Part shown: positions 1,862-55,757 of the stretch, piece by piece
Layout of the letters: every line of letters begins with the position of its first letter
Numbering within the stretch: position 1 is the stretch's first letter
Source of the DNA: Fidelibacterota bacterium
Lineage (GTDB): Bacteria; Pseudomonadota; Alphaproteobacteria; Rhodospirillales; Rhodospirillaceae
Assembly: GCA_947472795.1 (NCBI GenBank)
Contig: CANJBL010000007.1
Span: 62,001 to 126,000 of the forward strand
DNA length: 64,000 nucleotides
Direction of reading: 5' to 3'
Notes under the pieces: generated by a model
Seen by the model: the letters and a program-made list of their open reading frames with translations, nothing else
Told to the model about the DNA's origin: nothing
The model's database searches: none
Position numbers and translations under genes: made by a program

Positions 1862-1908
1862 GCGCCCTTGGCTTCCCAGCGTCGCCGTCAGGCAGCGCCT
1901 TTAGCTTC
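1862..1908 (-). repeat. Imperfect duplication of the serC 3' end
   Basis: On the minus strand GAAGCTAAAGGCGC (1895-1908), encoding the serC tail, recurs as GAAGCCAAGGGCGC (1862-1875), 12 of 14 bases the same. The offset is 33 bases, so the copy is in the serC frame and ends in its own TAA at 1858-1860. Read through the TGA, serC would gain a second EAKGA tail and stop. This is one of a series of stop-codon duplications in the window. Confidence 0.7.
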
Positions 1909-3039
1909 AGTGTAAGCCCACGTGAGCCACGGCATGAGTTTCTCAAGGTCGGCGGTGTCCACCGTCGCCCCACCCCAGATGCGCAGGCCCGCCGGCGCAT
2001 CGCGGTAGGCACCGATATCGACGGCCACACCTTCGGCTTCCAGCAGGCTCGCCATCTTCTTCGCCACTTCGCCCTGTTTCTCCGCGCCTTCGATCTTGGG
2101 CAACGTGAGGCAGATGGAGGTGCACGAGCGGATGTCGGCTGTCTCGGCCAGGAAAGCGAGCCAATCGTTCTTGGCAACGAAGTCCGAAAGCACTTTGAGG
2201 TTGCCTTCCGAGCGCGCGATGAGACCTTTGAGGCCGCCGACGCTTTCGGCCCAGTTCAAGCCATCCACGGCGTCTTCCACGCAAAGCATGGAGACAGTGT
2301 TGATAGTGTCGCCTTCGAAGATGCCTTCGCTCAGCTTGCCCTTGGAGGTCAGGCGGAAAATCTTCGGCATGGGCCACGGCGGCGTGTAGCTTTCCAGGCG
2401 CTCAACAGCGCGCGGAGAAATAATCAGCATGCCGTGCTGCGCTTCACCGCCCAGCACCTTCTGCCAGGAGTAGGTCACCACGTCGAGCTTGTCCCAGGGC
2501 ATCTCCATGGCGAACACGGCCGAGGTCGCGTCGCAAATGGTGAGGCCCTTGCGGTCCGACGGGATCCAGTTCCCGTTGGGCACGCGGACGCCCGAGGTCG
2601 TGCCGTTCCAGGTGAAGACCACATCGTGATCGAAATTCACCTGCTTCAAATCGGGCAGCTTGCCGTAGGGTGCGGTGATAGTGCGCGCGTCCTTCAGCTT
2701 CAGTTGCTTGATCACGTCCGTGACCCAGCCCTCGCCGAAGCTTTCCCAGGCCAGCATGTCCACCGGGCGGCCGCCCAGCGTATGCCACAACATCATCTCC
2801 ACGGCGCCCGTGTCGGAGGCCGGCACGATGGCGATCTTGTAGTCCGCGGGCACGCCGAGGATGGCGCGGGTTTTATCGATGACTTGCTTGATGCGCGCCT
2901 TGGCGGGCTTCGCGCGATGCGAACGGCCGACGAGCGCGTTCTTCAGGGCATCCAGCGTCCATCCCGGACGCTTGGCGCAAGGACCCGACGAAAACTGATT
3001 GCGCGCCGGCTTCACCGACGGCTTCGGACTGGCGGACAT
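1888..3039 (-). CDS. serC: Phosphoserine aminotransferase
   Basis: Transfers an amino group from glutamate to 3-phosphohydroxypyruvate, giving phosphoserine; PLP-dependent, cytoplasmic. The protein is 383 residues and of the alphaproteobacterial SerC type, with the PLP lysine in the motif [12 protein letters not shown] 45 bases further upstream is possible, but the ATG at 3039 begins the conserved sequence ([20 protein letters not shown]) and is preceded by AAAGGA. The operon partner serA follows. An in-frame copy of the last codons (EAKGA then a stop) recurs 33 bases downstream, listed separately as a repeat. Confidence 0.95.
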
Positions 3040-3180
3040 GAGGAGGCAGTTCCTTTGGAAAGAAGGCTTTTGAGACCAAGCCAAAGTCCAAAACGCTCCC
3101 GGGGACTCGGCTTGAAGGGGGCGGAGTTTATGAACCGGACCCTATGGCGTCAATCAAAGCCTCTCTGCCTGCTAACCCCC

Positions 3181-3201
3181 GCGAAAACCGGCGGTTTTCG
3201 C
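3181..3201. other. Perfect 9-bp hairpin between thiD and serC
   Basis: GCGAAAACC and GGTTTTCGC form a perfect 9-bp stem with a 3-base loop, 26 bases downstream of the thiD stop and upstream of serC. There is no T-tract on either side, so it is a weak candidate terminator. It could act as an mRNA 3'-end stabiliser for thiD or lie in the serC leader. Confidence 0.5.
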
Positions 3202-3202
3202 A

Positions 3203-3229
3203 TTATTTGCCAGCTTATTTGCCAGCTTA
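3203..3229 (-). repeat. Exact 12-bp tandem repeat at the thiD stop codon
   Basis: Directly after the thiD stop TAA (3227-3229), the minus strand carries GCTGGCAAATAA twice without a mismatch. The period of 12 keeps the frame, so three TAA stops follow one another in the thiD frame. This is one of the stop-codon duplications in the window. Confidence 0.9.
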
Positions 3230-4027
3230 TATGGAGGTGAAGGGCGCAACTGTGTGAGCGTGATTCAAGGGGCCGTGGCCTTTGCCCAATCCAGGCGCCG
3301 TCAGCATGGCCTGGCGCACATAAGCCCGGGCGCGGGCGACGGCCTGGGGCAGCGGCATCTTGTCCGCGAGCCCAGCTGCGATGGCGGAGGCCAATGTGCA
3401 GCCGGTGCCGTGCGTGGCTTTAGTTTGGATGCGTGTATCGGCAAAGCGGATGACATCATCGGTGGTGATGAGCAGATCAACCACTTCATCCCCCTCCAGA
3501 TGCCCGCCCTTCAGCAGAACCGCATAAGCGCCAAGGCTACGTAAAGCTGTGACCGCATCTTCCATATCCGCCACCGTGCGGATGGGTCGCTTTGTCAGCA
3601 CTTCCGCCTCGGGCAAGTTGGGTGTGATGAGCAAAGCACCGCGCACTAAATGTGTGGTCAGCGCGGCGGCGGACTCTTCGGCCAGCAGCGCGTGACCGCC
3701 CTTGGCGCGCATGACCGGGTCCACCACGCGCGGGATGCCCCTGCCCTTCAGTGCGCCAGCGACCGCTTCGATGATCGGCACGGAGGCCAGCATGCCGGTC
3801 TTGATGACGTCAGCGCCGATGTCGTCCAGCACAGCTTTGATCTGAGCGGCCACCACATCTGTCGGGATTTCGTGCACGCCTGTGACACCGAGCGTGTTCT
3901 GCACGGTGATGGCTGTCACTGCCGTCATGGCATAGCCGCCCAGGGCCGTGACGGTCTTGATGTCGGCTTGAATCCCGGCCCCGCCGCCGGAATCAGACCC
4001 TGCAATGATAAGAACGCGGCCGGTCAT
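3227..4027 (-). CDS. thiD: Hydroxymethylpyrimidine/phosphomethylpyrimidine kinase
   Basis: Phosphorylates HMP and then HMP-P to give HMP-PP for thiamine synthesis. The 266 residues match the family length. The N-terminal ribokinase-fold motif is IAGSDSGGGAGIQAD. The C-terminal anion-hole and catalytic-base motif is THGTGCTLASA. It is downstream of glmM on the same strand, separated by a 113-base spacer with two palindromes, so co-transcription is uncertain. The downstream thiamine step, thiE, is elsewhere in the window (25.8 kb). Confidence 0.95.
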   Translation of the reverse strand: MTGRVLIIAGSDSGGGAGIQADIKTVTALGGYAMTAVTAITVQNTLGVTGVHEIPTDVVAAQIKAVLDDIGADVIKTGMLASVPIIEAVAGALKGRGIPRVVDPVMRAKGGHALLAEESAAALTTHLVRGALLITPNLPEAEVLTKRPIRTVADMEDAVTALRSLGAYAVLLKGGHLEGDEVVDLLITTDDVIRFADTRIQTKATHGTGCTLASAIAAGLADKMPLPQAVARARAYVRQAMLTAPGLGKGHGPLNHAHTVAPFTSI

Positions 4028-4040
4028 TGTGCTCCACTCG

Positions 4041-4129
4041 TCATCCCGGACGAGCGTAGCGAGATCCGGGATCCAGGGTTACAGAGTAAAGCGTTTGCGG
4101 CTCTGGGTCCTGGCAATAAATGCCAGGAC
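4041..4129. repeat. Palindromic intergenic element between glmM and thiD
   Basis: Two perfect hairpins fill the spacer. One is ATCCCGGA (4043-4050) paired with TCCGGGAT (4065-4072). The other is GTCCTGGCA (4107-4115), loop ATAAA, and TGCCAGGAC (4121-4129). The first resembles the dispersed extragenic palindromes common in alphaproteobacterial genomes (the TCATCCCGGAC...GATCCGGGATCC type). It probably forms a structured RNA between the two genes, affecting transcript ends or stability. No second copy is present in this window. Confidence 0.65.
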
Positions 4130-4140
4130 GACGACGGTGC

Positions 4141-5505
<1,365 letters not shown>

Positions 5506-5592
5506 GGGGCTCCAGAGAGAAAGGTCGGGTGTAGGAACATATTCAACCGAGAACCCTGCCCTTTGGTTCCCGTCCTCAGGGCAAAGAATACC

Positions 5593-6666
5593 TCAAGTAC
5601 CCGTAATAAGACGAGTTGTCACCGCAAGGGCCTGGTGAGTCTCCGCAACATCGTGCACCCGCACGATTTGAGCCCCTTGGCGGACGGCGTGAATGGCGGC
5701 GGCCAGGGAGCCCGGCAGGCGGGCGGTCACGGGCTCGCCCCGGCTCATGCGGCCCAAAGATGCCTTCCGCGAGGCGCCTACGGCCAGTACGCAGCCCAGA
5801 CTGTGGAACAACGCCAGGTGATCCATAACCTCGGCATTGTGGACATCTGTTTTGCCGAAACCGAAGCCTGGGTCCAGCGCAATGCGCGATTTCGGGATGC
5901 CCGCCGCCGCACAGGCCGCGAGGCGCTCAACGAAGAAATCATAGATATCCCCAGGCGCCCAAACATAGGTGGGATTGTTCTGCATGGTGCTGGGCGTGCC
6001 CTGCATGTGCATGAGGATCACCACGGCGTTGGATTTGGCGATAAGCTCCAACGCGCCCTTATCGGCCAGCGCCGTGATGTCGTTGACCACAGCGGCCCCC
6101 GCCGCAATGGCGTCCGCCATGACTTTGGTGTGGCGCGTGTCGATGGAGACAGAAATACCGCGCGCGGCCAGCGCCTCCACCACCGGCAGGACGCGCACGC
6201 TTTCCTCGGCTTCGGTCACGTTTGTGGCCCCAGGCCGGGTGGACTCGCCACCCACATCGATGATGGCCGCCCCTGAGTCACACAGCATGCCTGCGTGTGC
6301 CGTGGCGGCTTGCAAGCCCTCGAAGCGCCCGCCGTCGGAGAAGCTGTCGGGTGTTACGTTGAGCACGCCCATGACAACGGGCTTGGTCACGCCCTGCCCC
6401 GCGAAGTCCGCGCGCGGTGACGCCATGGCTTCGCATTGCGCCGTGACAGCCGCGTTCACATCCGGTGTCAGACGTAGATTGCCGCCGTCGAAGGCCTTAC
6501 GTGCGAAGGTGCCCAGGCGTTTCACCGCGCCGTCGTTGCGCAGATGCAGTTCAATGGCTGTGAAAGCGTGCTCGTCACCCAGGAATGGCCACGCCCATTT
6601 GCCCGCGACTGCCTCGGCAGCACCAGCACTGGTCAGAAAGCCGCGCGGCGTCACATAAACTTGCAC
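5593..6666 (-). CDS. folP: Dihydropteroate synthase
   Basis: Condenses p-aminobenzoate with dihydropterin pyrophosphate in folate synthesis; target of sulfonamides. The core motifs are VLNVTPDSFSDGG, GGESTRPGA, VNDITAL, LMHMQGTP and LDPGFGFGKT. The protein is 357 residues, about 80 longer than the compact E. coli enzyme because of an N-terminal extension (residues 1-95) that is common in alphaproteobacterial FolP. It is upstream of glmM on the same strand. Confidence 0.95.
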   Translation of the reverse strand: MQVYVTPRGFLTSAGAAEAVAGKWAWPFLGDEHAFTAIELHLRNDGAVKRLGTFARKAFDGGNLRLTPDVNAAVTAQCEAMASPRADFAGQGVTKPVVMGVLNVTPDSFSDGGRFEGLQAATAHAGMLCDSGAAIIDVGGESTRPGATNVTEAEESVRVLPVVEALAARGISVSIDTRHTKVMADAIAAGAAVVNDITALADKGALELIAKSNAVVILMHMQGTPSTMQNNPTYVWAPGDIYDFFVERLAACAAAGIPKSRIALDPGFGFGKTDVHNAEVMDHLALFHSLGCVLAVGASRKASLGRMSRGEPVTARLPGSLAAAIHAVRQGAQIVRVHDVAETHQALAVTTRLITGT

Positions 6667-6688
6667 AGGCCCACTCCATCAAAACAAA

Positions 6689-6711
6689 GACCCCGCCGTA
6701 TGGGCGGGGTC
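6689..6711 (-). terminator. Rho-independent terminator after the 6.8-7.9 kb gene
   Basis: GACCCCGCC and GGCGGGGTC form a perfect 9-bp GC-rich stem with a 5-base loop. On the minus strand the stem is followed by TTTGTTTTG. It lies 64 bases past the stop of the hypothetical gene and just before folP, so it separates their transcripts. Confidence 0.85.
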
Positions 6712-6774
6712 TGGAGTTTAGGGCTTATTGAAATTTGGCGTAAGCACTTAGAGATCATCGACTAACGGCAAAAT

Positions 6775-9588: not shown

Positions 9589-11520
<1,932 letters not shown>

Positions 11521-16627: not shown

Positions 16628-16652
16628 TTGATCCGCCCTAATTGATCCGTCC
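16628..16652 (-). repeat. Imperfect duplication at the tolA stop
   Basis: GGACGGATCAA at the tolA 3' end (16642-16652) recurs as GGGCGGATCAA (16628-16638), 10 of 11 bases the same, with a period of 14. The TAG stop lies between the two copies. This is one of the stop-codon duplications in the window. Confidence 0.65.
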
Positions 16653-17477
16653 TTGGGGGCTGAAGTTCATCTCGATCTCTTTGAACATGGCGTAGTGATC
16701 GGGCGTGATCGGGATGTTGCCGCAACCTAGCACGGCGTTGCGGGCCGAGTTGGCGAAGGTGCGGAAAGAGGAATCCACGAAGTAGCGGGTCATATCGACG
16801 ATCTGCGCCTCGCGCACGGAGCCGTCGGGATTGATGAAGACGTTGATCTTCACCGACAGGTTCTCAAGCCCTTCCTTGCCGGGATCGATGCGCCAGCAGC
16901 CTTCGATATGGCGGCGGATGGCATCCAGTTCCGTCATGGACGCATGGTCCGAGATATTGGGCGCGATGTTGTTGCTGGGTGGTGCGTCTGTCTTGGCGGC
17001 CTGCTGCGCGGGCTTCGGCGCACTCTTCGTCATATCCTTCAGAAGTTTCTGAAGCGCGGCATTGTCGTCCTGCTTCGGCTTGGGCGGTGTCGGCTTCGGG
17101 GGCGGCGGCTTCACCTTCGGCTCAGGCGCCTTCTCCGGTTCCTTCTTGGGCTCCGGCTTCGGTGGTGTCGGGGGCGGCAAGGCTTCGGCTGGCGGCGTAT
17201 CGGCGGCGGGCGCCGGCTTGGGTGGCTCGGGCGTCACGGGCGTCGGCTCGGGCGCAGGCTCCGGCGTCGGCTTCGGCGCGGCCGAGGTGATATCCTCGAT
17301 CGGCACCAGATCGACGATGAGCGGTTGATCCTTAGGGATCTCGCGGTGGAAAAACGGCATGCCGACCCAGGCCAGCGCCACGATGCCGACGTGCAGCATC
17401 AGCGACAGGGTATAGCCCTGCGCAGTGGAAGCATTTCCACCGTCGACTTGACTGGTTATCTCACGTTGCACACGCAC
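16638..17477 (-). CDS. tolA: Tol system energy transducer TolA
   Basis: Couples the TolQR proton motor to the periplasm. It has 279 residues: a cytoplasmic N-terminus, one membrane helix (about 22-42), a long Pro/Lys/Glu-rich periplasmic rod (about 65-165) and a C-terminal TonB/TolA-like domain with two cysteines (EGCWRID and VLGCGNI). It is 27 bases downstream of tolR. A short duplication flanks its stop. Confidence 0.93.
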   Translation of the reverse strand: MRVQREITSQVDGGNASTAQGYTLSLMLHVGIVALAWVGMPFFHREIPKDQPLIVDLVPIEDITSAAPKPTPEPAPEPTPVTPEPPKPAPAADTPPAEALPPPTPPKPEPKKEPEKAPEPKVKPPPPKPTPPKPKQDDNAALQKLLKDMTKSAPKPAQQAAKTDAPPSNNIAPNISDHASMTELDAIRRHIEGCWRIDPGKEGLENLSVKINVFINPDGSVREAQIVDMTRYFVDSSFRTFANSARNAVLGCGNIPITPDHYAMFKEIEMNFSPQGRIN

Positions 17478-17978: not shown

Positions 17979-18701
17979 CTATTTCGTATCTAACTGGCGC
18001 GACAGGATAGCGCCGAACTCACCGGCAAAGTTCTCCAGCCGCAGGGCATAACGCGCGAGATCGCTGGAAATCTTGTTGTAGAAAACCACCGCGGGAATGG
18101 CAGCTACAAGTCCCAACGCGGTTGCAAACAAGGCTTCGGCGATACCGGGGGCCACTGTCGCAAGGCTGGTATCGGACGCGGCACCGATGGAGGTGAAGGT
18201 GTTCATGATGCCCCACACCGTGCCGAGCAGACCGAGGAACGGCGACACCGACCCGGTGGACGCCAGGAAGATCATGCGCCGGTTCAGGTGATCCATCTCG
18301 CGTTCGAGGCTGATCTTCATGACCCGGTCCATGCGCTCGGCGAGTGCTGCGCCGGCGGCGGTGGGGGCCGTGCCGCCCTTGCCGGAGGAGCGGCGCCACT
18401 CCTTCATGGCAGCCACGAAGATCGAGGACATGGGGTCCTTGGGGCGCTGACCGATGCGCTCATAGAGTTCTTCCAGCGAACTACCCGACCAGAAGCGCTC
18501 CTCGAACTGCTCGGCCTGTCGCGCCAGCGATCGCAAGCGCAGGATCTTGTCGAAGATGATGCCCCAGCTCCAGAGCGAGGCAAAGATCAGCAAGCCCATG
18601 ACACCTTTGACGACGATGTCGGCCTGCAGGAACAGGCTCCACGCCGAGAGATGAATTACGCCAGGCGCCTGCATGGCTGTCGTCGCTACTGTACTGTCCA
18701 T
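17979..18701 (-). CDS. tolQ: Tol system proton-channel protein TolQ
   Basis: MotA/TolQ/ExbB-type channel protein of 240 residues with three membrane helices (about 30-50, 148-170 and 190-212). The segment SVSPFLGLLGTVWGIMNTF is the conserved second-helix motif. It is the first tol gene, 63 bases downstream of ybgC on the same strand, which follows the usual ybgC-tolQRAB-pal-cpoB order. Confidence 0.97.
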   Translation of the reverse strand: MDSTVATTAMQAPGVIHLSAWSLFLQADIVVKGVMGLLIFASLWSWGIIFDKILRLRSLARQAEQFEERFWSGSSLEELYERIGQRPKDPMSSIFVAAMKEWRRSSGKGGTAPTAAGAALAERMDRVMKISLEREMDHLNRRMIFLASTGSVSPFLGLLGTVWGIMNTFTSIGAASDTSLATVAPGIAEALFATALGLVAAIPAVVFYNKISSDLARYALRLENFAGEFGAILSRQLDTK

Positions 18702-18764
18702 TTCGCCCTACCTATCCGTATCCACAAAACCATTGTCACTTCGCGTGTCACTGCGCAGCCACTC

Positions 18765-28396: not shown

Positions 28397-29032
28397 ATGC
28401 ATCCCGCGGCCCTCGCATACCTCAAGTGGTTTCACGAAACCAACATCTGGAAGCATGTCGCATACCGGGGTGTGCGCACACTAAAGTTGCCATCCGACAT
28501 GTGGAATTATCAGGAAATTCTATTTGCCCATGACATCGAATGGGTCATCGAGACCGGATCCCGCCACGGCGGATCGGCGATTTTTTTTGCCGACCAGTTA
28601 AAAAATATGGATCGGAGCGGCAAGGTGTTCAGCATTGATTGCGCGCCGATGCTGGATCCGCGTGCGGCTGCCGACAAGGGTGTTGAGTTCATCATCGGCG
28701 ACAGCGCAGCGCCCGAGATCGTCGCACACGTCCTTGGACAATTGCCGGCGAACCGCAAAAACCTTTTCCTGATCCTTGATTCCGATCACACCGCGGCCCA
28801 CGTCAAACGCGAACTCGATGCATGGGTCCCTCACTTGCGTAAGGGAGACTATCTGATCGTCGAGGATACGATCGTCAACGGCAATCCTGTCCGCCCCGAC
28901 CATGGCCCCGGACCGATGGAAGCCATACGCCAATTCCGAACGGATAACCCCACTGCACTGATGGCCGATCTGGCGCGTGAAGGTAAGTTCGGCGCCACAT
29001 GTGCCCGGGAAGGGTACTATTTAAAGGCCTAG
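28397..29032 (+). CDS. CmcI-family methyltransferase (cephalosporin hydroxylase family)
   Basis: A 211-residue SAM-dependent methyltransferase fold of the CmcI family, with the motif IEWVIETGSRHGGSAIFFAD and a probable metal/acidic motif LILDSDHTAAHV. In other bacteria such proteins often sit in polysaccharide or O-antigen loci and modify sugars. It precedes the GSCFA gene on the same strand. Its stop codon is inside a 19-bp tandem duplication. Confidence 0.85.
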   Translation: MHPAALAYLKWFHETNIWKHVAYRGVRTLKLPSDMWNYQEILFAHDIEWVIETGSRHGGSAIFFADQLKNMDRSGKVFSIDCAPMLDPRAAADKGVEFIIGDSAAPEIVAHVLGQLPANRKNLFLILDSDHTAAHVKRELDAWVPHLRKGDYLIVEDTIVNGNPVRPDHGPGPMEAIRQFRTDNPTALMADLAREGKFGATCAREGYYLKA

Positions 29033-29058
29033 TTCCAAATTAATGGCCCAGTTCCAAA
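29021..29058 (+). repeat. 19-bp tandem duplication spanning the CmcI-gene stop
   Basis: TTAAAGGCCTAGTTCCAAA (29021-29039) is followed immediately by TTAATGGCCCAGTTCCAAA (29040-29058), 17 of 19 bases the same. The TAG stop is in the first copy and is CAG in the second, so the copy does not provide a backup stop. The period is 19, out of frame. Confidence 0.92.
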
Positions 29059-29175: not shown

Positions 29176-30171
29176 GTGACTCAAACTGCTCCACCGACCA
29201 AGCCGCGTGACCTGCAGTCCTGGGAGGATTTCCACCCGGACCCCGACTTCTATGTCGCCGTCAAAAAGCTGCTGAAGCCCAATACCAAGATCTTCACCAT
29301 GGGCAGCTGCTTCGCCTTCGAGATCAGGCGCGCGCTACGCGAAGCCGGTTTCCCGATTTTTCCGCACTATCTGGATACGCGCTATGACCCCACCGTGCAG
29401 ATCTTCGATAAGGTAAATGAGCGCAATTCGGTTTTTCACTACGACACTTTCGTAATGCGCCAGGAGTTCGAAGAAGTGTTCGGCCTGCGCACGGATCGTG
29501 AAGCCAATTTTCACCCCGTTCGCGATGCGCATATCAACAGAATTTTGAATACAGACGAAGCCTACCAAGATCCCACGCGGCGGCTGGTGTACGCCAAGAC
29601 ACTCCCGCTGCTCAAGGAACTGAGCACCGCGATCAGCAGGGTGACGCGTGAGGGCCTGGAGAAGTCAGATGTGATCGTGCTGACACTGGGTCTCACGGAA
29701 GTCTGGCCGCATGTCTCCACGACTTGGAACTTCTGTCTGCCGCCGGGTCTTGGCCTAGGCGGCGGCGACAATATGGCCAAGTTCAAGATCAGCAATTTCG
29801 GCGAGAATTATAAGAACACCAAAGCCATCATCGAGCTGATCCTGTCGCACTATCCGAACAAGCACATCATCATGTCGGTCTCGCCAGTTCATCTGGAACG
29901 GACCTATGCGCAGACGGACGTGGGCACAGCGAGCACCGAGAGCAAATCAATCCTGCGCGCCGTCGCGGGCCAGGTGACGCGCGAGTATGCCCGCAACGTG
30001 ACCTACTATCCGGCTTATGAAATGGCGCAGTTCAGCCGCGAACGCGTCTTCGGCAGGGACGGCCGCCATGTGGTTCCGGAGTTTGTAAACCGCGTCGTCG
30101 GAGGTTTTGTGGGGGCCTTCAGCGTCGAGCCTCGTAGGCGCGCGAAAAATCCCGAAAGTGTTGCGAGCTAA
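29176..30171 (+). CDS. GSCFA-domain protein
   Basis: A 331-residue protein with the family signature TMGSCFAFEIRRAL near residue 45 and a downstream SVSPVHLERT motif (about 236-245), consistent with the GDSL/SGNH-like fold proposed for GSCFA proteins. These are usually found in polysaccharide-modification contexts; the substrate is unknown. The start is GTG with no clear ribosome binding site. A possible -10 (TATACA, 29131-29136) lies in the 143-base spacer after the CmcI-like gene. Confidence 0.85.
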   Translation: MTQTAPPTKPRDLQSWEDFHPDPDFYVAVKKLLKPNTKIFTMGSCFAFEIRRALREAGFPIFPHYLDTRYDPTVQIFDKVNERNSVFHYDTFVMRQEFEEVFGLRTDREANFHPVRDAHINRILNTDEAYQDPTRRLVYAKTLPLLKELSTAISRVTREGLEKSDVIVLTLGLTEVWPHVSTTWNFCLPPGLGLGGGDNMAKFKISNFGENYKNTKAIIELILSHYPNKHIIMSVSPVHLERTYAQTDVGTASTESKSILRAVAGQVTREYARNVTYYPAYEMAQFSRERVFGRDGRHVVPEFVNRVVGGFVGAFSVEPRRRAKNPESVAS

Positions 30172-30189
30172 ACCACGGGGCTAAATCAC
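30167..30189 (+). repeat. Short duplication at the GSCFA-gene stop
   Basis: GCTAAACCAC (30167-30176), containing the TAA stop, recurs as GCTAAATCAC (30180-30189), 9 of 10 bases the same, with a period of 13. It belongs to the series of stop-codon duplications. Confidence 0.65.
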
Positions 30190-33840: not shown

Positions 33841-35481
33841 GTGGCATTTAGTCGTATTGCGAAAAACACGACGCGGCGCTTGCGGCCGGGAACAACGTTC
33901 CTGACAGCCACAGGGCTTGCGACCATTCTGGCTGTGAGCTTTTGCACGCCGGCTTGGGCCGACGGCGATCCCAATGCCAAGGCACGCGGACCCGGTGTGC
34001 GCTCGATCACCGCCGGTGGTCCACCACCCAATGATGTAATTGTCGATTACGCCGTGTTGGATTCATTGTCGCGTGGGAGCAGCGCGAGCCTGTTGATTCC
34101 GCAGTCCGGCCGACTGGATGACAGTGCGCCGGTTGTTCTGCATCCGCCCGCTGGTGTTGCGCCGACGCTGATCCCGCCGCGCGGCGTGCAAGCCACCGCG
34201 CCATCAGCCGGAAGCCGCGTCGCGGTGGTGAAGCTGCGTCCGCCTGCCGGCGTTCGCGTCGCGGAGGCGAAACCCGCACCTGTGCGCACGGCGCGCGCGG
34301 AAGAACCGAAAATGACTCCGGCGGCCAAGCCGCCTGAGCCAAAAATTGCAGCACCGAAAGCTGAAGCGCCGAAGGCAGCTTCTCCGGCGCCGAGAGCCGC
34401 GCCTGCGAAAGTGGAAGTGGCGAAGGCCGCGCCTCCGGCGCCTGCGAAAATTGAAACAGCGAAGGCGCCAACACCCGCAGCACCTGCTCCGGCAGCGAAA
34501 CCTGCCACACCTCCTGCGGCGATGGCGGCAGCGCCTGTGAAACCGGCTGCGCCACCCATTGCTGCGCCAGCCGCTGCGACGCCACCCGCTGCCGCGCCGA
34601 AACCGGCAGCCCCCGTTCAAACCGCGAGCGCACCGCCGCCCGCGATGACACCTGCGCCCGCACCTAAGCCTGCTGCGCCTGTCGCGACACCCACTGCCAC
34701 ACCAGCCCCGGCTCCCGCTAAACCAGTAACAGCCGCTGCTACACCTCCGGCTCAGCCGGCGCCGGCAGCACCGCCAGCGGCCCGTCCTGCTGCAACACCG
34801 CCTCCTGCTGCAACAGCATCCACCGCACCGCCCGCCGCGAAACCCTCAGCGCCCGCGACACCACCGCCAGCAGCAACCGCCGCGGCCACGCCTGCTCCGG
34901 CGACACCAGCTCCTGTCGCATCGGCACCCGCGGCAACATCGGTGCCAGCTGCTGACGCCGCCGCGCCGCGCTCGTTGCTAACGCCGCCGCCGGAAACACG
35001 CATGGCGGGTTTGCCCCCGGCGCGCGCGGTAAACGCGCGCGACTCAAATGATGGCGGCCTTCCGCCGCCGGTTACTTCAACAACACCGGCACCTGCCGCA
35101 ACGCCTGCGCCTGCGGTCTCCGCGCCACCCACACAGACTGCTGCCCTGCCCGTACAAAGACCCGGCGAACCGGACACGCTGACGATCTCGTTCGCGGTCG
35201 GTATTCCGGAAGTGCCGACGGGCGCCGAAGCCGGATTGAAGACCTTGGCCGCGCGCATGAAAGCAGACGCCAACATTCGCGTGCAACTTCTGGCCTTCGC
35301 GTCCGACCCGGAGAAAAGCGTGAGCCGTTCGCGCCGCCTGTCGCTGGAGCGTGCCGTGAACGTGCGCAAGCAGCTGTTGTCGGCGGGCATCGATTCCACA
35401 CGCATCGAAGTGCGTGCGCTGGGCGAGCAAGCCGGTGACGGCGCGCCGGACCGCGTGGATGCCATCACCTCGCGGCGCTAA
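33841..35481 (+). CDS. Ala/Pro-rich periplasmic protein with OmpA-like C-terminus
   Basis: A 546-residue protein that starts at GTG. It has a signal peptide (hydrophobic core TGLATILAVSF, cleavage near AWA/DGD), about 300 residues of Ala/Pro/Thr/Lys low-complexity sequence (about 140-440) and a C-terminal OmpA/MotB-like domain (about 440-546) with the motif SRRLSLERAVNVRKQLLSAG. The rod would span the periplasm, with the end domain on peptidoglycan. It precedes the MotA/MotB-like pair by about 150 bases and may work with it. Translation of the many PP pairs should need EF-P, encoded 1 kb upstream. Confidence 0.85.
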   Translation: MAFSRIAKNTTRRLRPGTTFLTATGLATILAVSFCTPAWADGDPNAKARGPGVRSITAGGPPPNDVIVDYAVLDSLSRGSSASLLIPQSGRLDDSAPVVLHPPAGVAPTLIPPRGVQATAPSAGSRVAVVKLRPPAGVRVAEAKPAPVRTARAEEPKMTPAAKPPEPKIAAPKAEAPKAASPAPRAAPAKVEVAKAAPPAPAKIETAKAPTPAAPAPAAKPATPPAAMAAAPVKPAAPPIAAPAAATPPAAAPKPAAPVQTASAPPPAMTPAPAPKPAAPVATPTATPAPAPAKPVTAAATPPAQPAPAAPPAARPAATPPPAATASTAPPAAKPSAPATPPPAATAAATPAPATPAPVASAPAATSVPAADAAAPRSLLTPPPETRMAGLPPARAVNARDSNDGGLPPPVTSTTPAPAATPAPAVSAPPTQTAALPVQRPGEPDTLTISFAVGIPEVPTGAEAGLKTLAARMKADANIRVQLLAFASDPEKSVSRSRRLSLERAVNVRKQLLSAGIDSTRIEVRALGEQAGDGAPDRVDAITSRR

Positions 35482-35526
35482 GCCACGACTTTGTAAGAAG
35501 CGTCTTCGTAAGACCGACTATATAAG
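35479..35526 (+). repeat. Repeated TAAG-containing units after the OmpA-like gene stop
   Basis: TAAG occurs at 35479, 35494, 35509 and 35523, a spacing of 15, 15 and 14. The first two full units, TAAGCCACGACTTTG and TAAGAAGCGTCTTCG, match at 11 of 15 bases. The first TAA is the stop of the gene and the next two are in the same frame. It is a decayed tandem array at a stop codon. Confidence 0.6.
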
Positions 35527-40533: not shown

Positions 40534-41214
40534 CTAGGCTGCTTGACGCACGGCGTTCGCAATCCGTCCGTCAATCATCTCGACGACGCGGCCCGCCCTG
40601 GCGGCATGGACAGGAGAATGCGTGACCATGAGGATGGAAACACCCTGTTCGTTGAGCGTGCTGAGCATCTCCATGACATCGTCGCCGTTCTTGGTGTCGA
40701 GATTGCCGGTGGGCTCGTCCGCCAGGATCAACTTGGGATCTCCGACCACCGCGCGGGCGACGGCCGCACGCTGCTGCTGGCCACCGGAAAGCTGGGCCGG
40801 ACGATGCCGCGCGCGGGAGTCGAGGCCGACAAGCTCCAGCACTTCGCGCACACGGTCGCGGCGGCGCGCCTTCGGCACATTCTGATAAAGAAGCGGCAGT
40901 TCGACGTTCTCGAACACCGTAAGATCTTCCAGAAGATTGAAACTCTGGAAGATGAAACCGACGTGCTGCCGGCGGATTTCCACCATGCGGCTTTCCCGGA
41001 AGGCCGAGATGTCTTCACCGTCGAAGATGTACTGCCCGGCGTCGGGCCTATCAATCAGACCCGCAACATGCAGCAGAGAGGACTTACCGCAGCCGGAAGG
41101 ACCGACAAGCGCGACAAATTCGCCTTTGCCTACGTCCAGGCCGACATCGTCGAGCGCAACTGTCTCCATTTCTTTTGTGCGGTAAGTCTTACGAATCCCC
41201 GACAGCGTGATCAT
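40534..41214 (-). CDS. MacB/LolD-type ABC transporter ATP-binding protein
   Basis: A 226-residue ATPase with Walker [10 protein letters not shown], signature LSGGQQQR, Walker [13 protein letters not shown] and the His switch VTHSP. The frame is open upstream, but the ATG at 41214 gives the normal start ([13 protein letters not shown]), has AAGGGGA upstream and lies inside the 3' end of the adaptor gene (26-base overlap), so translation is coupled. It energises the neighbouring permease. Confidence 0.94.
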
Positions 41215-42550
41215 GCTTTTCCCCTTCTGCTGGCTTTCGTTTAATGTCGATACGGTCGATGTCGTCATAAGGCGCGTAGGTTGACACGATGATGCGATCA
41301 CCGGTCTGCAAGCCCTGTAAGACCTCGATGCTGTCCGGATTGCGACGGCCGAACGAGACGGCACGGCGCACGGCACTATCGCCAGACGGCGACAGAAGAA
41401 AGACCCATTGTCCAGCAGCGTCGTCATAAAATGCGCCATTGTCGACCATGAGCGTCTCCGCGGGATCGCCAATTTCGATTTTCACTTGCAGCGTTTGACC
41501 GCGGCGTATTCCTGCCGGCGCTTCGATGAATTGCAGATCGACGGCGAATTGCCGGTCCTTGATGCCGGGATAGACCTTGGAAACCTTGAGCGCATAGTCC
41601 TTCCCATTGATGCGTGTGCTGGCGCCCTGATTAGGCAGCACGCGCGCCATATAGAATTCATCGACATTGGCACGGACCTTGAAACCATCGTCGCTGTCGA
41701 TCTGTCCAATACGCTGGCCCTGCTGTTTGACGGCGCCGAGGTCGGCATCAAGGAAGCTGAGTTGCCCGGAAATAGGGGCGGTAATATTCAGGGCCTTTAG
41801 ATTGCCGCGCGTCATGGTGAGGTTGTGAGAAATGAGATCGATGGACTGCTGCAACTGCCGCACCTGTTCCGGCCGAGATGCATCGTCGGCGGTTTGCGCG
41901 GCCTGCACGCTCGCATAGACGCCATTGTAGTGCGCAAGGTTGCGCTCCAGGTCGTCGAACTCCTGGCGTGAGACATAGCCGCCTGCCAGCAAGGGCCGTT
42001 TGCGGTCGCGCTGAGATGTCAGAAGCCCGATCTGGTAACCGATTTCGGTCAAATCGCGGACTCGCTGCAAGCGGCGCTCATTGAGGGCTTGGTTGATGGT
42101 CGTCAGCTGATAAAGCTGTTGTGCGAGGGCAGCCTCGCGGCCCGCCACATCGAGCTCGAGATTGGCATTGCGGAGCGCGACCAGCGGCTGACCTGCCACC
42201 ACGCTCGCCCCCTCTTCCACATGAATTTCCGCAATCGCGCCGCCGGCGACGGCATCGAGATAGACCGTGGTGCGGGGAACAGCGCTGCCCGTGACGGGAA
42301 TGTAGTCGTGGAAGACGGAGCGCCGGACGGTGGCGATATTGAGGCGTTCAGCGTCCACCGTCATAAAATGCGCGACCCCAAAACGTACAAAGGCATAGGT
42401 GGCGGCGGCCAGGAGGAGCGCGAGCAAAGCCGCCACCACCATGCGCCGGCGGGTCACCAGCGGATGAAACACAGGCCGGTCCATGGCGCTGAAGATCAGC
42501 TCATCGCCGCCCCGTTCCGGATCTGCCGTCTTCAAGCGCTCGATGATCAT
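41189..42550 (-). CDS. Periplasmic adaptor (HlyD/MacA family)
   Basis: A 453-residue membrane-fusion protein: an N-terminal anchor helix (about 37-56), a biotinyl-lipoyl half (VEEGASVVAGQPLVAL), a helical hairpin (about 130-250), the second half and beta barrel, and a C-terminal domain. It would link the ABC pump to an outer-membrane channel, which is not encoded here. First gene of the operon, it is divergent from the GntR regulator, and the operator candidate at 42.58-42.60 kb lies directly upstream. Confidence 0.9.
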   Translation of the reverse strand: MIIERLKTADPERGGDELIFSAMDRPVFHPLVTRRRMVVAALLALLLAAATYAFVRFGVAHFMTVDAERLNIATVRRSVFHDYIPVTGSAVPRTTVYLDAVAGGAIAEIHVEEGASVVAGQPLVALRNANLELDVAGREAALAQQLYQLTTINQALNERRLQRVRDLTEIGYQIGLLTSQRDRKRPLLAGGYVSRQEFDDLERNLAHYNGVYASVQAAQTADDASRPEQVRQLQQSIDLISHNLTMTRGNLKALNITAPISGQLSFLDADLGAVKQQGQRIGQIDSDDGFKVRANVDEFYMARVLPNQGASTRINGKDYALKVSKVYPGIKDRQFAVDLQFIEAPAGIRRGQTLQVKIEIGDPAETLMVDNGAFYDDAAGQWVFLLSPSGDSAVRRAVSFGRRNPDSIEVLQGLQTGDRIIVSTYAPYDDIDRIDIKRKPAEGEKHDHAVGDS

Positions 42551-42573
42551 CTTGGCCTGATTGCTGGGCCTGA

Positions 42574-42603
42574 TTGATATGGTGTGTTATTATACTAATA
42601 CAC
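42574..42603. promoter_or_regulatory. Divergent promoter/operator region between the adaptor and gntR
   Basis: An AT-rich imperfect palindrome, GTGTTATTATACTAATACAC (42584-42603), sits in the intergenic space. It has GTGT/ACAC ends and ATTA/TAAT inner arms, and resembles operators of YtrA-type GntR regulators. A plus-strand promoter overlaps it: TTGATA (42574-42579), a 16-base spacer and TAATAC (42596-42601). On the minus strand a perfect TATAAT (42594-42589) faces the export operon but lacks a good -35. Binding here would control both directions. Confidence 0.6.
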
Positions 42604-42669: not shown

Positions 42670-43035
42670 ATGGCCAAAGCGCACACCTGGAACGACGACC
42701 AGCCCATTTACCGGCAGCTGATGGGCGAGATTCTAGGTCGCATCCTTGACGGCACCTATGCCGAGGGTGAGCTGCTGCCGTCCGTGCGCCAATTCGCCAG
42801 TGATTTTCAGGTCAACCCTTTGACGGTCGCCAAGGCCTTGCAGGAATTGGCGCGCGACGAACTGACGGAAAAGCGGCGCGGCATCGGCATGATGGTGAGA
42901 ACCGGCGTGCGCAACGCCTTGCAAAGCCGCGAGCGCCATAGGTTCCTCAAGGAGGAGTGGCCGTTGTTAGTGGCGCGCATGGAGCGCATGGGCATTGATG
43001 TGAAGACGCTTTTAAAGACGCAAGGGCCGAAGTAG
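42670..43035 (+). CDS. YtrA-type GntR transcriptional regulator
   Basis: A 121-residue protein with a GntR winged helix (IYRQLMGEILGRILDGTYAE, then LLPSVRQFASDFQVNPLTVA) and a very short C-terminal tail, which marks the YtrA subgroup. Such regulators usually repress a neighbouring ABC exporter and respond to envelope-active compounds. The ATG at 42670 follows AAAAAGGCG; the longer upstream frame is rejected. The stop lies in an in-frame 15-bp duplication. Confidence 0.9.
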   Translation: MAKAHTWNDDQPIYRQLMGEILGRILDGTYAEGELLPSVRQFASDFQVNPLTVAKALQELARDELTEKRRGIGMMVRTGVRNALQSRERHRFLKEEWPLLVARMERMGIDVKTLLKTQGPK

Positions 43036-43053
43036 CTAGGGCCGAAGTAGAGA
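43024..43053 (+). repeat. 15-bp tandem duplication spanning the gntR stop
   Basis: GGGCCGAAGTAGCTA (43024-43038) is followed by GGGCCGAAGTAGAGA (43039-43053). The first 12 bases are identical and 13 of 15 match overall. The period keeps the frame, so the duplicate would give a second GPK-stop. It is a clear case in the stop-codon duplication series. Confidence 0.92.
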
Positions 43054-49717: not shown

Positions 49718-49772
49718 GCCTTTCAGCACGCGGCTTGAAAGCAGAGCACGCGGGCCCTATCATCCCGCGCTT

Positions 49773-50207: not shown

Positions 50208-50286
50208 CGATCATTCACGGGTGTGTCGCCCCGCTTGTTCAAGCGGACGGCGTGCCCTGACGTACCGTTGTTTTGGGGATTTTTTC

Positions 50287-52599: not shown

Positions 52600-52626
52600 A
52601 ATGGCACATCATTTCATGAGCCCAAT

Positions 52627-53262
52627 ATGACACCTGAAAAATCTCCACTTCCGCTTTGGCTGATCGCCATCGGCGGATTGATTGCCGTCGGTTCGGCGGC
52701 CTTTGGATTGTACGTGGGAAATTCCATCCCCGAGCAGCCCGCAACAAAGGCGACCGTCACACGCAGCGGACCGGACCGGCGCGACTTCGCGCTGGTGGAT
52801 ACGGACGGCAAGCCCGCAACGCTGGCGAACTTCCAAGGCAAGTGGGTGCTGATGTTCTTCGGTTTCACCAACTGCCCGGATGTGTGCCCGACAGCGATGA
52901 TCAATCTGGGCAATACGCTGAAGGCCATGGGCGACGGCGCCAAAGACGTGCAACCGGTGTTCATCACTATCGATCCCGAACGGGATACGCCGGAGGTGTT
53001 GAAAAGCTATCTCGGCAATTTCGATGCGCAGGTGATTGGACTGACCGGCAGTGCCCAACAGATTGCCGACGTGGCGCGGGCTTATCCCACCTTCTATCAG
53101 AAGCACGCCTTGGGCGACGGCAACTACACCATGGATCACAGCTCTGCTTTCCAATTGATATCGCCCACGGGTGAATATCTGCGCGCCTTCCGGCCCGACG
53201 ACGAGCCGGATGAATTCGCAAAAGAACTGCTGGCCGCCATGGGCAAGGAACCCCGCACATGA
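52627..53262 (+). CDS. SCO1/SenC family copper chaperone
   Basis: A 211-residue thioredoxin-fold protein anchored by an N-terminal helix (about 7-29). The copper ligands are the CxxxC pair in TNCPDVCPT and a distal His in YTMDHSSAF. SCO proteins mature the CuA/CuB sites of cytochrome oxidases. Its stop overlaps the next start by four bases (ATGA). Confidence 0.94.
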   Translation: MTPEKSPLPLWLIAIGGLIAVGSAAFGLYVGNSIPEQPATKATVTRSGPDRRDFALVDTDGKPATLANFQGKWVLMFFGFTNCPDVCPTAMINLGNTLKAMGDGAKDVQPVFITIDPERDTPEVLKSYLGNFDAQVIGLTGSAQQIADVARAYPTFYQKHALGDGNYTMDHSSAFQLISPTGEYLRAFRPDDEPDEFAKELLAAMGKEPRT

Positions 53263-53693
53263 AACTAAAAACACTCCTCGCATCCATGATGGTGTTTCTT
53301 CCGGCGGCGGCTCATGCCGAGGTCAGCGTGAAGGATGCGTGGCTGCGCGAAACACCCGGGCAATCCAAAGTCTCGGCGGCCTACGCGAGCATCGAGAATA
53401 CGGGAGCCGCCGACACCCTGACCGGCATCACGATGTCGGTGCCGGGCATGGCGGAGGTGCATCGCTCCATGCAGCAGGACGGCATCATGAAGATGGATGC
53501 GGTACCGCGCTTGGAGGTGCCCGCCAAAGGCAAGGTCGAGCTGAAGCCCGGCAGCTTTCATGTGATGGTGATGAACCTTCAGCAGCCATTGAAGGTGGGC
53601 GAGACGGTGAATATCACCTTCACGTTCGAGCATGCCGGCAAGGTGACCGTGCCGGCGAAGGTGGCACCGTTGGGTGCGACGACGGCGCCTTAG
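53259..53693 (+). CDS. Periplasmic copper chaperone PCu(A)C
   Basis: A 144-residue protein with a signal peptide (MKLKTLLASMMVFLPAAAHA). The Met/His copper motif pattern runs from EVHRSM and MKMDAVP to GSFHVMVMNL. It hands copper to SCO and oxidase sites. Translation is coupled to the SCO gene. Its 3' end overlaps the convergent DUF1192 gene by four bases. Confidence 0.93.
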   Translation: MKLKTLLASMMVFLPAAAHAEVSVKDAWLRETPGQSKVSAAYASIENTGAADTLTGITMSVPGMAEVHRSMQQDGIMKMDAVPRLEVPAKGKVELKPGSFHVMVMNLQQPLKVGETVNITFTFEHAGKVTVPAKVAPLGATTAP

Positions 53694-53872
53694 GACTTAA
53701 AGAAAGACTCCGCCCCCGAGCGGGCCTTGTCCTTGGTGGCGATGGCCCCCTCGGCGCGGGTGATCTCGGCCTTCAGGTCGGCGATGTATTCTTTAAGGTC
53801 ACCCACGGACATACGGGAGAGATCCTTCTTCACTAGCTTCTTCTTGAGTGGGTCGAGTTCGTCCGTATCCAT
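53690..53872 (-). CDS. DUF1192 family protein
   Basis: A 60-residue, charged protein beginning MDTDELDPLKKKLVKKDLS and containing MSVGDLKEYIADLKAEI, typical of this small alphaproteobacterial family of unknown function. The ATG at 53872 is preceded by GGGAGA; a longer frame upstream is rejected. Confidence 0.85.
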   Translation of the reverse strand: MDTDELDPLKKKLVKKDLSRMSVGDLKEYIADLKAEITRAEGAIATKDKARSGAESFFKS

Positions 53873-54116
53873 GGCGGGTCTCCCGGTGAAGCCTCGCAGG
53901 ATGCCGTTATACAACCCCCAAATTTAGGGTCAAATCGGGCTTAATCGTAAATCTTTCCAATATTTTAGCCCAAAAATGGCGGAACGGTTTGACCCTGCCG
54001 CCGGAAACCCGATATATACCCTTTGAATTCATGCGTGGGGTCCCGTTGCCGGCTTGGGTGGCGGGTGGGGTGCTTTTGCCCCAAAGCCCCTCTCGCGTCA
54101 CCCGAAAGGAACTCTC

Positions 54117-54815
54117 ATGTCGCTGCCTCTTATGCCCAAGGCAACGGCCGTCTGGCTGGTGGAAAACACCGCGCTCTCCTTTGAGCAGATCGCTGCCTTC
54201 ACAGGCATGCACGAACTGGAAATCCAGGCCATTGCCGATGGTGAAGTCGCTATCGGCATCGTCGGCGTGAACCCGATCACCAACGGCCAGCTTACCCAGG
54301 ACGAACTGGATAAGGCGGAGAAGGATCAGAAGTTCAAACTGAAGATGAACAAGACGGACATTCCGCTGCCGACGGCGCGCTCCAAAGGAGCGCGTTATAC
54401 GCCGGTGTCCAAGCGCCAAGACCGCCCCGATGCCATATCGTGGCTGCTGAAGCATCATCCCGATCTGACGGATGCGCAGGTCAGCCGCCTCATCGGCACG
54501 ACCAAGCCGACGATTTTGTCTGTGCGCGACCGCTCGCACTGGAATGCGACCAATATCAAACCGCAAAACCCAGTGACCTTGGGCCTGTGCACGGAAGCTG
54601 AACTTGAGAAGGCCGTCGTCATCGCCCAGCGCCGTGCGACCAACGCCGCCAAGGCGAAGGTCCGCGAAGCAAACCGCCGCGATCGCGAAGCAAAAGCCGC
54701 TGCCGCCGCTGCGGAAGCCGCTGCCAACCCGCCCGCCGAACAAGCTCCGGCAGAAACCGCCACGCCCGCTCCCTCGCCTGATTCCTCCACGGGCGACGAC
54801 GGCCAACCGAGCTAA
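54117..54815 (+). CDS. trcR: Cell-cycle transcriptional regulator TrcR (DUF1013)
   Basis: A 232-residue protein with the family N-terminus (MSLPLMPKATAVWLVENTAL), an HTH-like region (LTDAQVSRLIGTTKPTILSV) and an Ala/Pro-rich tail. DUF1013 proteins are conserved in alphaproteobacteria and named TrcR; they are linked to cell-cycle transcription. AAAGGA lies eight bases before the ATG at 54117. Confidence 0.92.
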   Translation: MSLPLMPKATAVWLVENTALSFEQIAAFTGMHELEIQAIADGEVAIGIVGVNPITNGQLTQDELDKAEKDQKFKLKMNKTDIPLPTARSKGARYTPVSKRQDRPDAISWLLKHHPDLTDAQVSRLIGTTKPTILSVRDRSHWNATNIKPQNPVTLGLCTEAELEKAVVIAQRRATNAAKAKVREANRRDREAKAAAAAAEAAANPPAEQAPAETATPAPSPDSSTGDDGQPS

Positions 54816-54857
54816 CTCATCTTTGGGCTCGCGCAGCCCAGACGCAGAGAACAAAAA

Positions 54858-54881
54858 AAGGCCCATCCGACGATGGGCCTT
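54858..54881. terminator. Bidirectional terminator between trcR and the minus-strand YdcH-like gene
   Basis: AAGGCCCATC and GATGGGCCTT form a perfect 10-bp stem with a CGAC loop. On the minus strand it is trailed by seven T, which fits the YdcH-like gene at 54.98 kb. On the plus strand TTAAGCGTTTTT follows, after trcR. Confidence 0.92.
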
Positions 54882-54976
54882 AAGCGTTTTTGGGATCCTA
54901 CCCTATCCACATCCGGGCGCGGCGAGTCCTCCGCGTGAGCCCCGTGGGAAGGTTATTGGCTGAGCTTATAAGCTAA

Positions 54977-55141
54977 CTAGCAACTGGCGCGTTGCAGCTC
55001 GTCTTTTATCTTCAGCTTCTTTCTTTTGAGTTGGTGGACCAGGTCGAAGTTCGGCCATGGTCGGCGTTCTTCTTCGATGAGGTAATGTTCGATTTCTGCG
55101 TGCTTGGTACGAAGTGCTTCTACCCGCGCTTCCTGAGCCAT
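54977..55141 (-). CDS. YdcH/DUF465 family small protein
   Basis: A 54-residue protein read directly from the sequence: it begins MAQEARVEALRTKHAEIEHY and ends with a Lys-rich helix (LKRKKLKIKDELQ). This is the DUF465 (YdcH) pattern of a short helical hairpin. Function is unknown. A second family member lies divergently 341 bases away. The stop is followed by AGTTAGC, echoing AGTTGCT just before it. Confidence 0.82.
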   Translation of the reverse strand: MAQEARVEALRTKHAEIEHYLIEEERRPWPNFDLVHQLKRKKLKIKDELQRASC

Positions 55142-55482
55142 GGAACGATATCCTCCGGATCAGTTTCAGAAGACCTCAAGCTTACCCCCCTGCGCCGCAG
55201 AAATTCCAGAGGTGGGCTCAAGACATTGATGTGTAATGAATTTAAAGCCGGGGAAATTTCCCGCAAAAACACCTTTGGCCGCCAAAAAACCACGGAGTCG
55301 ATGCCCCGGCGCCATCCCGCCACCGCCTGCGCAATTCATCGACATTCGAGGCCTGCGGTGTAAACTGGTGCATGGGGCCACAAACAATCGAAACGGGGCA
55401 GGCTCCCCGCGCCTCCGTTTCAAAGCAATAATGCCGCCGGAACTTGGACTTAAGAGAAGTTCTGGGAACGCGCGCCAGCGGG
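55142..55482. other. 341-base spacer between two divergent YdcH-like genes
   Basis: No convincing gene or RNA was found. The open frames here have no family features and look like shadows. It must contain the two divergent promoters. It is long for so small a gene pair, so a small RNA cannot be excluded. Confidence 0.5.
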
Positions 55483-55701
55483 ATGCAGACGAACGACATG
55501 CAGTGGGATCAGGAGCAGTTACTAGCCAAACTCGGCGAACTGGAACTGGAGCACCGCGACCTGGACGATGTCATCAATAGCCTGATGAACCAGCCGGATT
55601 TCGATCAGATCAAGGTCGGGCGGTTGAAGAAGCGCAAGCTGGCGCTCAAAGACCAGATCACCTCTCTGCGCGGCAAGATGATCCCCGACATTATCGCTTA
55701 G
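55483..55701 (+). CDS. YdcH/DUF465 family small protein (second copy)
   Basis: A 72-residue protein with EHRDLDDVINSLMNQPDFDQ and GRLKKRKLALKDQI, typical of DUF465. The start may be the ATG at 55483 or at 55498. It is divergent from the shorter paralogue. ATCGC recurs across its stop (ATCGCTTAGTG then ATCGCCGCGTG). Confidence 0.85.
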   Translation: MQTNDMQWDQEQLLAKLGELELEHRDLDDVINSLMNQPDFDQIKVGRLKKRKLALKDQITSLRGKMIPDIIA

Positions 55702-55707
55702 TGATCG

Positions 55708-55757
55708 CCGCGTGATTTACCGGCCCGCGTGATTTACCGGCCCGCGTGATTTACCGG
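55708..55757 (-). repeat. Three tandem copies of a 17-bp unit at a stop codon
   Basis: CCGCGTGATTTACCGG occurs exactly at 55708-55723, 55725-55740 and 55742-55757, with a period of 17. On the minus strand each copy reads CGGTAAATCACGCGG. The copy nearest the gene supplies its last Arg codon and TAA stop. This is the longest array of the stop-codon duplication series. Confidence 0.97.

What the first reader, a model, noticed from the sequence alone, without database searches (positions are those of the whole stretch)
1862..55757. Recurrent tandem duplication of sequence around stop codons
At many independent genes the bases spanning or following the stop are duplicated at once. Cases: GGDEF-like gene (17-bp period x3, exact 16-mers), thiD (12 bp x2, exact), gntR (15-bp period, 13/15), CmcI-like gene (19 bp, 17/19), serC (12/14 at +33), tolA (10/11), GSCFA (9/10), the oxygenase gene (7/8) and a decayed TAAG array after the OmpA-like gene. 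Some periods keep the frame and so add backup stops (12, 15, 33); others (8, 13, 14, 17, 19) do not. I saw no similar density elsewhere in the window. It could reflect a local duplication mechanism at gene ends, relaxed selection on slippage there, or selection for backup stops. I know of no named description of it.
Basis: partly seen in the sequence, partly recalled or inferred. Interest (0 to 1): 0.72.

Follow-up and report, generated by a model that had tools for sequence, protein, structure and literature searches.

The report
Neutral tandem duplications around stop codons
In this uncultured alphaproteobacterium about two gene ends in a hundred carry a 12-28 base tandem duplication across the stop codon, most likely because such duplications are harmless exactly there, not because they serve as backup stop signals.

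Summary
Four of the nine listed window cases (17 bp x3, 12, 15 and 19 bp) are far beyond chance, tolA is borderline, and the others I could locate are near shuffle level singly. Outside the window, 17 of 999 gene ends in the same genome carry a stop-covering duplication, against 3 of 1008 starts. Three control replicons have 0 of 706, but mixed GC-rich loci have 4 of 304, so the kind is not unique. Stop-containing units are 3.4 times denser than purely noncoding ones (p=0.0025), about twice the densest noncoding class, and not significantly denser at the strictest threshold. Stops with 50 free downstream bases are no richer than intergenic middles (7 of 344 against 19 of 1010). Periods keep frame in 8 of 25 clean cases, as chance predicts: no sign of selected backup stops. 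No orthologous end examined has the duplication, and protein ends are the same or nearly so. Joins mostly lack microhomology. Best reading: genome-wide short tandem duplication, filtered by selection, persisting where both neighbours stay intact. A stop-targeted process is not excluded.

The parts
55708..55757 (-). 17-bp unit x2.9, exact; first copy holds the TAA stop of gene 55751-56500(-); lies between convergent genes
   Evidence: the one orthologous end in reach (G003) ends LLRTSG* with no repeat
3203..3233 (-). 12-bp unit x2.6 across the thiD TAA stop (gene 3227-4027, -); period keeps frame
   Evidence: not seen by eye at 12 of 13 other thiD ends printed (the 13th, G008, has no homologous C-terminus there), nor by computation at 3 of these
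29021..29058 (+). 19-bp unit x2 (17/19) across the TAG stop of the CmcI-like gene (28397-29032); second copy has CAG in place of TAG
   Evidence: Pfam RMNT_CmcI E 1.3e-47
43020..43050 (+). 15-bp unit x2 (15/16) across the TAG stop of the GntR-family gene (42670-43035); lies between convergent genes; keeps frame
   Evidence: Pfam GntR E 8e-13
16628..16653 (-). 14-bp period, 11/12, at the stop of the tolA-like gene (16638-17477, -); borderline
   Evidence: score 9.5 with 0.40 stops expected at that level over 56
1862..1908 (-). 12/14 match at offset 33 around the serC stop (gene 1888-3039, -); not tandem, near chance level
   Evidence: score 9.0 with 0.91 expected over 56 stops
30167..30189 (+). 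9/10 match at offset 13 at the stop of the GSCFA gene (29176-30171); near chance level
   Evidence: score 7.5 with 5.09 expected
35486..35513 (+). decayed 14-15 bp periodicity with TAAG after the OmpA-like gene (33880-35481); near chance level
   Evidence: score 8.0 with 3.25 expected
56616..56648 (.). 19-bp tandem duplication in noncoding DNA away from any called stop, same kind of event
42551..42576 (.). 13-bp tandem duplication directly upstream of a start codon (gene 41189-42550, -)

Best explanation
Short tandem duplications (detectable here at 12-28 bp, mostly 12-19) arise throughout this genome, usually without help from a pre-existing repeat. Selection then sorts them. Inside genes mainly frame-keeping ones last. 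A duplication whose unit contains the stop codon leaves the whole gene, stop included, in the first copy and the whole downstream junction in the second copy, so it changes neither protein nor neighbour and persists. The stop is therefore the edge of a tolerant zone and not a signal. Shown: the events, their absence from the orthologous ends in reach, the same or nearly the same protein ends there, the lack of frame preference and the coding frame filter. Inferred: that the mutational input is not itself concentrated at stops, and the molecular route (for example fill-in of staggered ends followed by joining, or template switching without homology). The load is high against three control replicons and one genus member, but not against a mixed set of GC-rich loci.
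For: Against shuffles, score >=11: stop windows 26 of 720 (0.60 expected), of which stops with 50 free downstream bases 7 of 344 (0.23); intergenic middles 19 of 1010 (1.30); upstream of starts 8 of 489 (0.28); gene interiors 2 of 526 (0.53). So duplication is raised in all noncoding DNA. Coding events are 131 of 148 in multiples of 3; stop hits 11 of 30, clean ones 8 of 25. None of 16 orthologous ends (computed) nor of 19 printed ends with a homologous C-terminus (by eye; some genomes in both) shows the duplication; 8 of 12 events with orthologues end at the same residue by eye, for example RAKYLE*, LTPK*, VEDVA*, ALFLG*. L minus d is <=2 in 38 of 45 near-exact two-copy events pooled over the sampled genomes. 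No link to downstream hairpin energy (p=0.76) or local GC (p=0.19).
Against: Stop-containing units are 3.4 times denser than purely noncoding units even without the window (10 per 9,869 positions against 24 per 81,462; p=0.0025), and convergent stops are densest (5 per 2,912). If all noncoding DNA were equally neutral this would not be expected; my account needs the rest to be partly constrained, and without stop units the directional classes do not fall in a clean order of constraint (codir5 11 per 22,065, codir3 5 per 22,067), though with them included they do (convergent > co-directional > divergent). Where a unit could slide, I counted it as stop-containing if any position was, which favours stops. 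The stop's position within the unit is mildly skewed to the unit's end (KS p=0.033). All counts rest on my own gene caller.
Confidence: 0.66

Rival explanations
1. A mutational process targeted to gene ends: duplications are made preferentially at stop codons or just after them (for instance where transcription and translation uncouple, or where convergent transcription collides), and selection only removes the coding ones.
For: 3.4-fold excess of stop-containing units over noncoding ones outside the window; convergent stops 11 of 21 against 329 of 1014 other stops (p=0.06); mild skew of the stop to the end of the unit.
Against: The excess is about 2-fold (not tested) against the densest noncoding class (11 per 22,065 in the 5' half of co-directional spacers) and 2.25-fold, p=0.19, at the strictest threshold. 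Stops with free downstream DNA are no richer than intergenic middles (7 of 344, 19 of 1010). No hairpin or GC link. Slower decay of half-coding copies would give some excess for free (inference).
Confidence: 0.19
2. Selection for backup stop codons keeps the second copy.
For: Some periods (12, 15, 18, 24) keep frame and do supply a second in-frame stop.
Against: 8 of 25 clean cases keep frame, as chance predicts. In-frame stops downstream are not enriched: 198 against 202 and 224 of 524. A published test reports no evidence in eubacteria (PMC6764699, abstract and passages).
Confidence: 0.04
3. Classical slipped-strand expansion on pre-existing short repeats.
For: Arrays of three or more copies exist (55708-55757; L022 7501-7559; L008 241-462) and probably grew by slippage once two copies existed (growth inferred). 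7 of 45 two-copy events have L-d of 3 or more.
Against: 38 of 45 near-exact two-copy events show L-d of 2 or less, so no direct repeat of 3 bp or more is visible at their boundaries.
Confidence: 0.15
4. Ku/LigD end joining of staggered breaks makes the duplications.
For: Blunt-looking joins; Ku matches in 7 of 21 genomes.
Against: The own genome (97% complete) shows only a Ku fragment with an internal stop and no LigD ligase match; G012 shows neither and is as rich (4 events, 309 stops). G003, G011, G010 and G001, with both (LigD match in G001 partial and under the cut-off), have 2 of 684. The reverse trend is significant only if the own genome is included (p=0.006, against 0.25 without it).
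Confidence: 0.04
5. Chance self-similarity picked out by a pattern-seeking reader.
For: The weaker window cases are at shuffle level.
Against: Strong ones are far above shuffles and recur in a separate sample of 999 stops.
Confidence: 0.01

Closest known systems
Short tandem duplication class of insertion mutations
   Same: Head-to-tail copy of a unique 12-28 bp stretch, mostly two copies, absent from the orthologues in reach
   Different: Noncoding load is about 8 times that of three control replicons (35 per 184.6 kb against 4 per 170.5 kb) but like that of mixed GC-rich loci (8 per 39.4 kb); denser at stops. That short insertions are often tandem duplications in other organisms is recalled, from no call
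Additional (fail-safe) 3' stop codons, Ho and Hurst 2019, PMC6764699 (abstract and passages seen)
   Same: Extra stop triplets just downstream of the primary stop
   Different: Here they come as part of a duplicated block and fall in any frame, so they are not in-frame backups as a class
Intergenic TAACTGA direct repeats of Beggiatoaceae, PMC4679880 (search listing and start of abstract only)
   Same: Many loci with short direct repeats in intergenic DNA of one lineage
   Different: There one heptamer recurs; here each locus duplicates its own sequence
VNTR/minisatellite arrays (recalled)
   Same: Tandem head-to-tail copies; three or more copies at a few loci
   Different: Most loci have about two copies and no visible repeat-prone start

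Membership tests
Short tandem duplications | second copy adjacent to the first, sequence particular to the locus | tested here: met
   exception: one 47-base stretch recurs at three places (noticed in passing)
Short tandem duplications | derived insertion absent from orthologues | tested here: met
   12 distinct events had orthologous ends in reach and no such end carries the duplication (by eye, computed; 12 of 30 stop cases queried gave a usable orthologue)
Short tandem duplications | new events seen in mutation accumulation | not testable with these tools
   no resequencing data held
Fail-safe additional stop codons | in-frame excess of downstream stops | tested here: not met
   198, 202, 224 of 524 genes in frames 0, +1, +2
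Fail-safe additional stop codons | duplication period keeps the frame | tested here: not met
   8 of 25 clean cases, 11 of 30 stop hits
Slippage at pre-existing repeats | microhomology at the unit boundary (match length exceeds the period) | tested here: not met
   L-d <=2 in 38 of 45; >=3 in 7 of 45
Ku/LigD end joining | Ku and LigD present in genomes rich in duplications | tested here: not met
Flap-nuclease (PolA 5' nuclease) deficiency | loss of the 5'-3' exonuclease domain | tested here: not met
   PF02739 found in 19 of 19 genus genomes including the own
Target-site duplication of a mobile element | element or remnant between the copies | tested here: inconclusive
   copies abut or nearly abut in the listed cases, but the search only looks for copies at offsets up to 32-40 bases, so separated pairs would be missed

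The most novel reading that the evidence does not exclude
In this lineage a mutational process makes short, homology-free tandem duplications preferentially at translation stops, above all between convergent genes, linking duplication to the place where ribosomes leave the transcript or where opposing transcription meets.
Probability: 0.17. Interest if true: 0.7.

Novelty: new member of a known kind. Interest (0 to 1): 0.34.

Why it matters
Stop-spanning duplications are a useful natural read-out of duplication mutation, since they leave the protein alone and are easy to polarise with orthologues; their load differs between the genomes sampled here. If a stop-targeted excess survives whole-genome counts, it would point to a link between translation or transcription ends and DNA breakage or polymerase switching. 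If not, it is a clean example of how a neutral filter can look like a designed backup system.

Tried and rejected
Backup stops: rejected by the frame test and the downstream-stop count. Ku/LigD end joining: does not track, if anything inverse. Loss of the PolA flap nuclease: found in 19 of 19 genomes. Downstream hairpins or AT-richness as cause: no difference. Preferred place of the stop within the unit: weak after allowing for sliding of the unit (mean 0.63, KS p=0.033). Stop codon type: TAA 17, TAG 8, TGA 5 of 30 against 41, 27 and 32 percent in own plus G012; not pursued. Paper searches listed no description of stop-centred duplications in bacteria among the rows shown; the lists were capped and the library is partial, so that is no proof of absence. 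Rows excluded from event counts: units with internal period 1, 2, 3, 4 or 6 at 70 percent identity or more, match length under 0.75 of the period, identity under 80 percent. The opportunity counts leave out spacers over 500 bp and overlapping or abutting neighbours. Orthologues: identity 45 percent or more, match reaching within 12 residues of the C-terminus, one per genome.
Full report
WHAT WAS CHECKED. I called genes with a home-made coding model; on one annotated E. coli stretch it found 44 of 48 stops with no false one. Self-similarity was scored as ungapped match +1, mismatch -1.5, at offsets of 6-40, 7-30 or, for events, 10-32 bases.

THE WINDOW. Four duplications stand out: 17 bp x2.9 exact (55708-55757), 12 bp at thiD, 19 bp at the CmcI-like gene, 15 bp at gntR. 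Over 56 stops, shuffles predict 0.24 with score >=10 and 7 are seen; two of these are the convergent neighbour's view of the same repeat and one lies in the next gene. tolA is borderline. serC, GSCFA and the TAAG array sit where about one to five chance hits are expected. Duplications also occur in noncoding DNA away from stops.

OUTSIDE THE WINDOW. In the first 864 kb (window included), at score >=11: stop windows 26 of 720 (shuffles 0.60), upstream of starts 8 of 489 (0.28), intergenic middles 19 of 1010 (1.30), gene interiors 2 of 526 (0.53). Against a stop effect, stops with 50 free bases downstream have 7 of 344 (0.23), the same share as intergenic middles; the surplus lies at stops with a close neighbour. 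In 1.2 Mb without the window, with the event definition, 17 of 999 stops and 3 of 1008 starts are covered (p=0.0014). Counting only positions where a unit could lie without changing coding sense, stop-containing units are 10 per 9,869 positions and wholly noncoding units 24 per 81,462, a ratio of 3.4 (p=0.0025); at score >=11.5 it is 7 against 20 (2.89, p=0.022), at >=13 it is 3 against 11 (2.25, p=0.19). The densest noncoding class, the 5' half of co-directional spacers, has 11 per 22,065, so the excess over it is about 2-fold (not tested). The window was the discovery set and is richer (4 of 57).

OTHER GENOMES. Stop-covering events: G012 4 events over 309 stops, G003 1 of 379, G009 1 of 256, G011 0 of 138, G010 1 of 56, G001 0 of 111, order-level mix 0 of 90. 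Control stretches: Rhizobium tropici pRtrCIAT899c 0 of 307, Tritonibacter p2 0 of 237, E. coli 0 of 162. Mixed GC-rich loci around thiD from 49 records: 4 of 304 stops, two of them convincing by eye, and 8 noncoding events in 39.4 kb; low-GC loci 1 of 191 and none in 21.4 kb (genes there were called with a model pooled over species). So the kind of event is not unique to this genome. Its load at stops is above the three controls (p=0.0002) and G003 (p=0.034) and no different from G012 (p=0.80); its noncoding rate (35 per 184.6 kb) is about 8 times that of the three controls (4 per 170.5 kb) but the same as in the mixed loci.

ORIGIN. I compared gene ends with orthologues. For thiD, a penicillin-amidase-family gene (L016) and a tyrosine-phosphatase-family gene (L009), 12, 3 and 4 printed ends of relatives lack the duplication by eye; the last two genes end at the same residue, thiD within a few. 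Of 30 stop cases queried against the fetched stretches, 12 (thiD again, two convergent pairs counted twice) had 16 orthologous ends, none with a duplication. In the L009 gene the second copy keeps the CTN leucine codon of the relatives while the first has a synonymous change. In total 12 distinct events had orthologues in reach; 8 end at the same residue by eye, thiD, L030, L159 and G012 L205 differ by a few residues, and the two convergent partner genes (G012 L201 and L205, minus strand) do not align clearly at the end.

FRAME AND JUNCTION. Coding events pooled over the sampled genomes are 131 of 148 in multiples of 3, the mark of selection against frameshifts; stop events are 11 of 28, stop hits 11 of 30 and clean ones 8 of 25. 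Downstream in-frame stops are not enriched (198, 202, 224 of 524), in line with Ho and Hurst 2019 (PMC6764699; abstract and found passages seen). Match length minus period is 2 or less in 38 of 45 near-exact two-copy events, so most show no direct repeat of 3 bp or more at the boundary; trimmed ends make small negative values common.

MECHANISM TESTS. Ku matches occur in 7 of 21 genomes, in the own one only as a fragment with an internal stop (G000 C36), and the LigD ligase domain in 4 of 21. The rich genomes (own, G012) lack a full set as far as their assemblies show, and the four genomes with both have 2 events in 684 stops, so Ku/LigD end joining is an unlikely source. The PolA 5' nuclease domain is present in 19 of 19. 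Hairpin energy and GC at the stop do not differ. Convergent stops are somewhat over-represented (11 of 21 against 329 of 1014, p=0.06).

CONCLUSION. The simplest account is a mostly homology-free short tandem duplication process over the whole genome, seen where it does no harm. A unit holding the stop leaves gene and neighbour intact, so stop regions collect such events. A residual 2-3.4-fold stop excess leaves room for a targeted process, which these counts cannot settle. Limits: home-made gene calls, about 39 percent of the genome sampled, few events, and unclear noncoding constraint.

Noticed in passing
G000:C36:9440-9604 (L218): A fragment of a Ku domain (57 of 190 positions) with an internal stop, and no LigD ligase match in the genome, while four genus relatives have both: patchy, possibly decaying end-joining system.
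   Followed up: partly
L008 241-462 and 1303-1400: A 24-bp array of about nine copies and a 31-bp array of about three copies close together near a contig start.
   Followed up: no
L022 7501-7559: An exact 17-bp array of about 3.5 copies in noncoding DNA.
   Followed up: no
L006 about 18659-18707, L010 1-47, L143 about 6515-6562: The same stretch of about 47 bases with a 24-bp internal repeat recurs at three places, one of them at a contig start; it looks like a dispersed repeat.
   Followed up: no
window 61273-61320: A palindrome with 10-base perfect outer arms (GAGCATGTTC ... GAACATGCTC) between two convergent genes, terminator-like; the arm pattern is not over-represented in the sampled genome (7 hits, about 6 expected from base composition).
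   Followed up: partly
L010 16419-17492 (-): The in-frame stop appears to lie at the start of the second copy of a 22-bp duplication, so here the duplication may have made the present stop.
   Followed up: no
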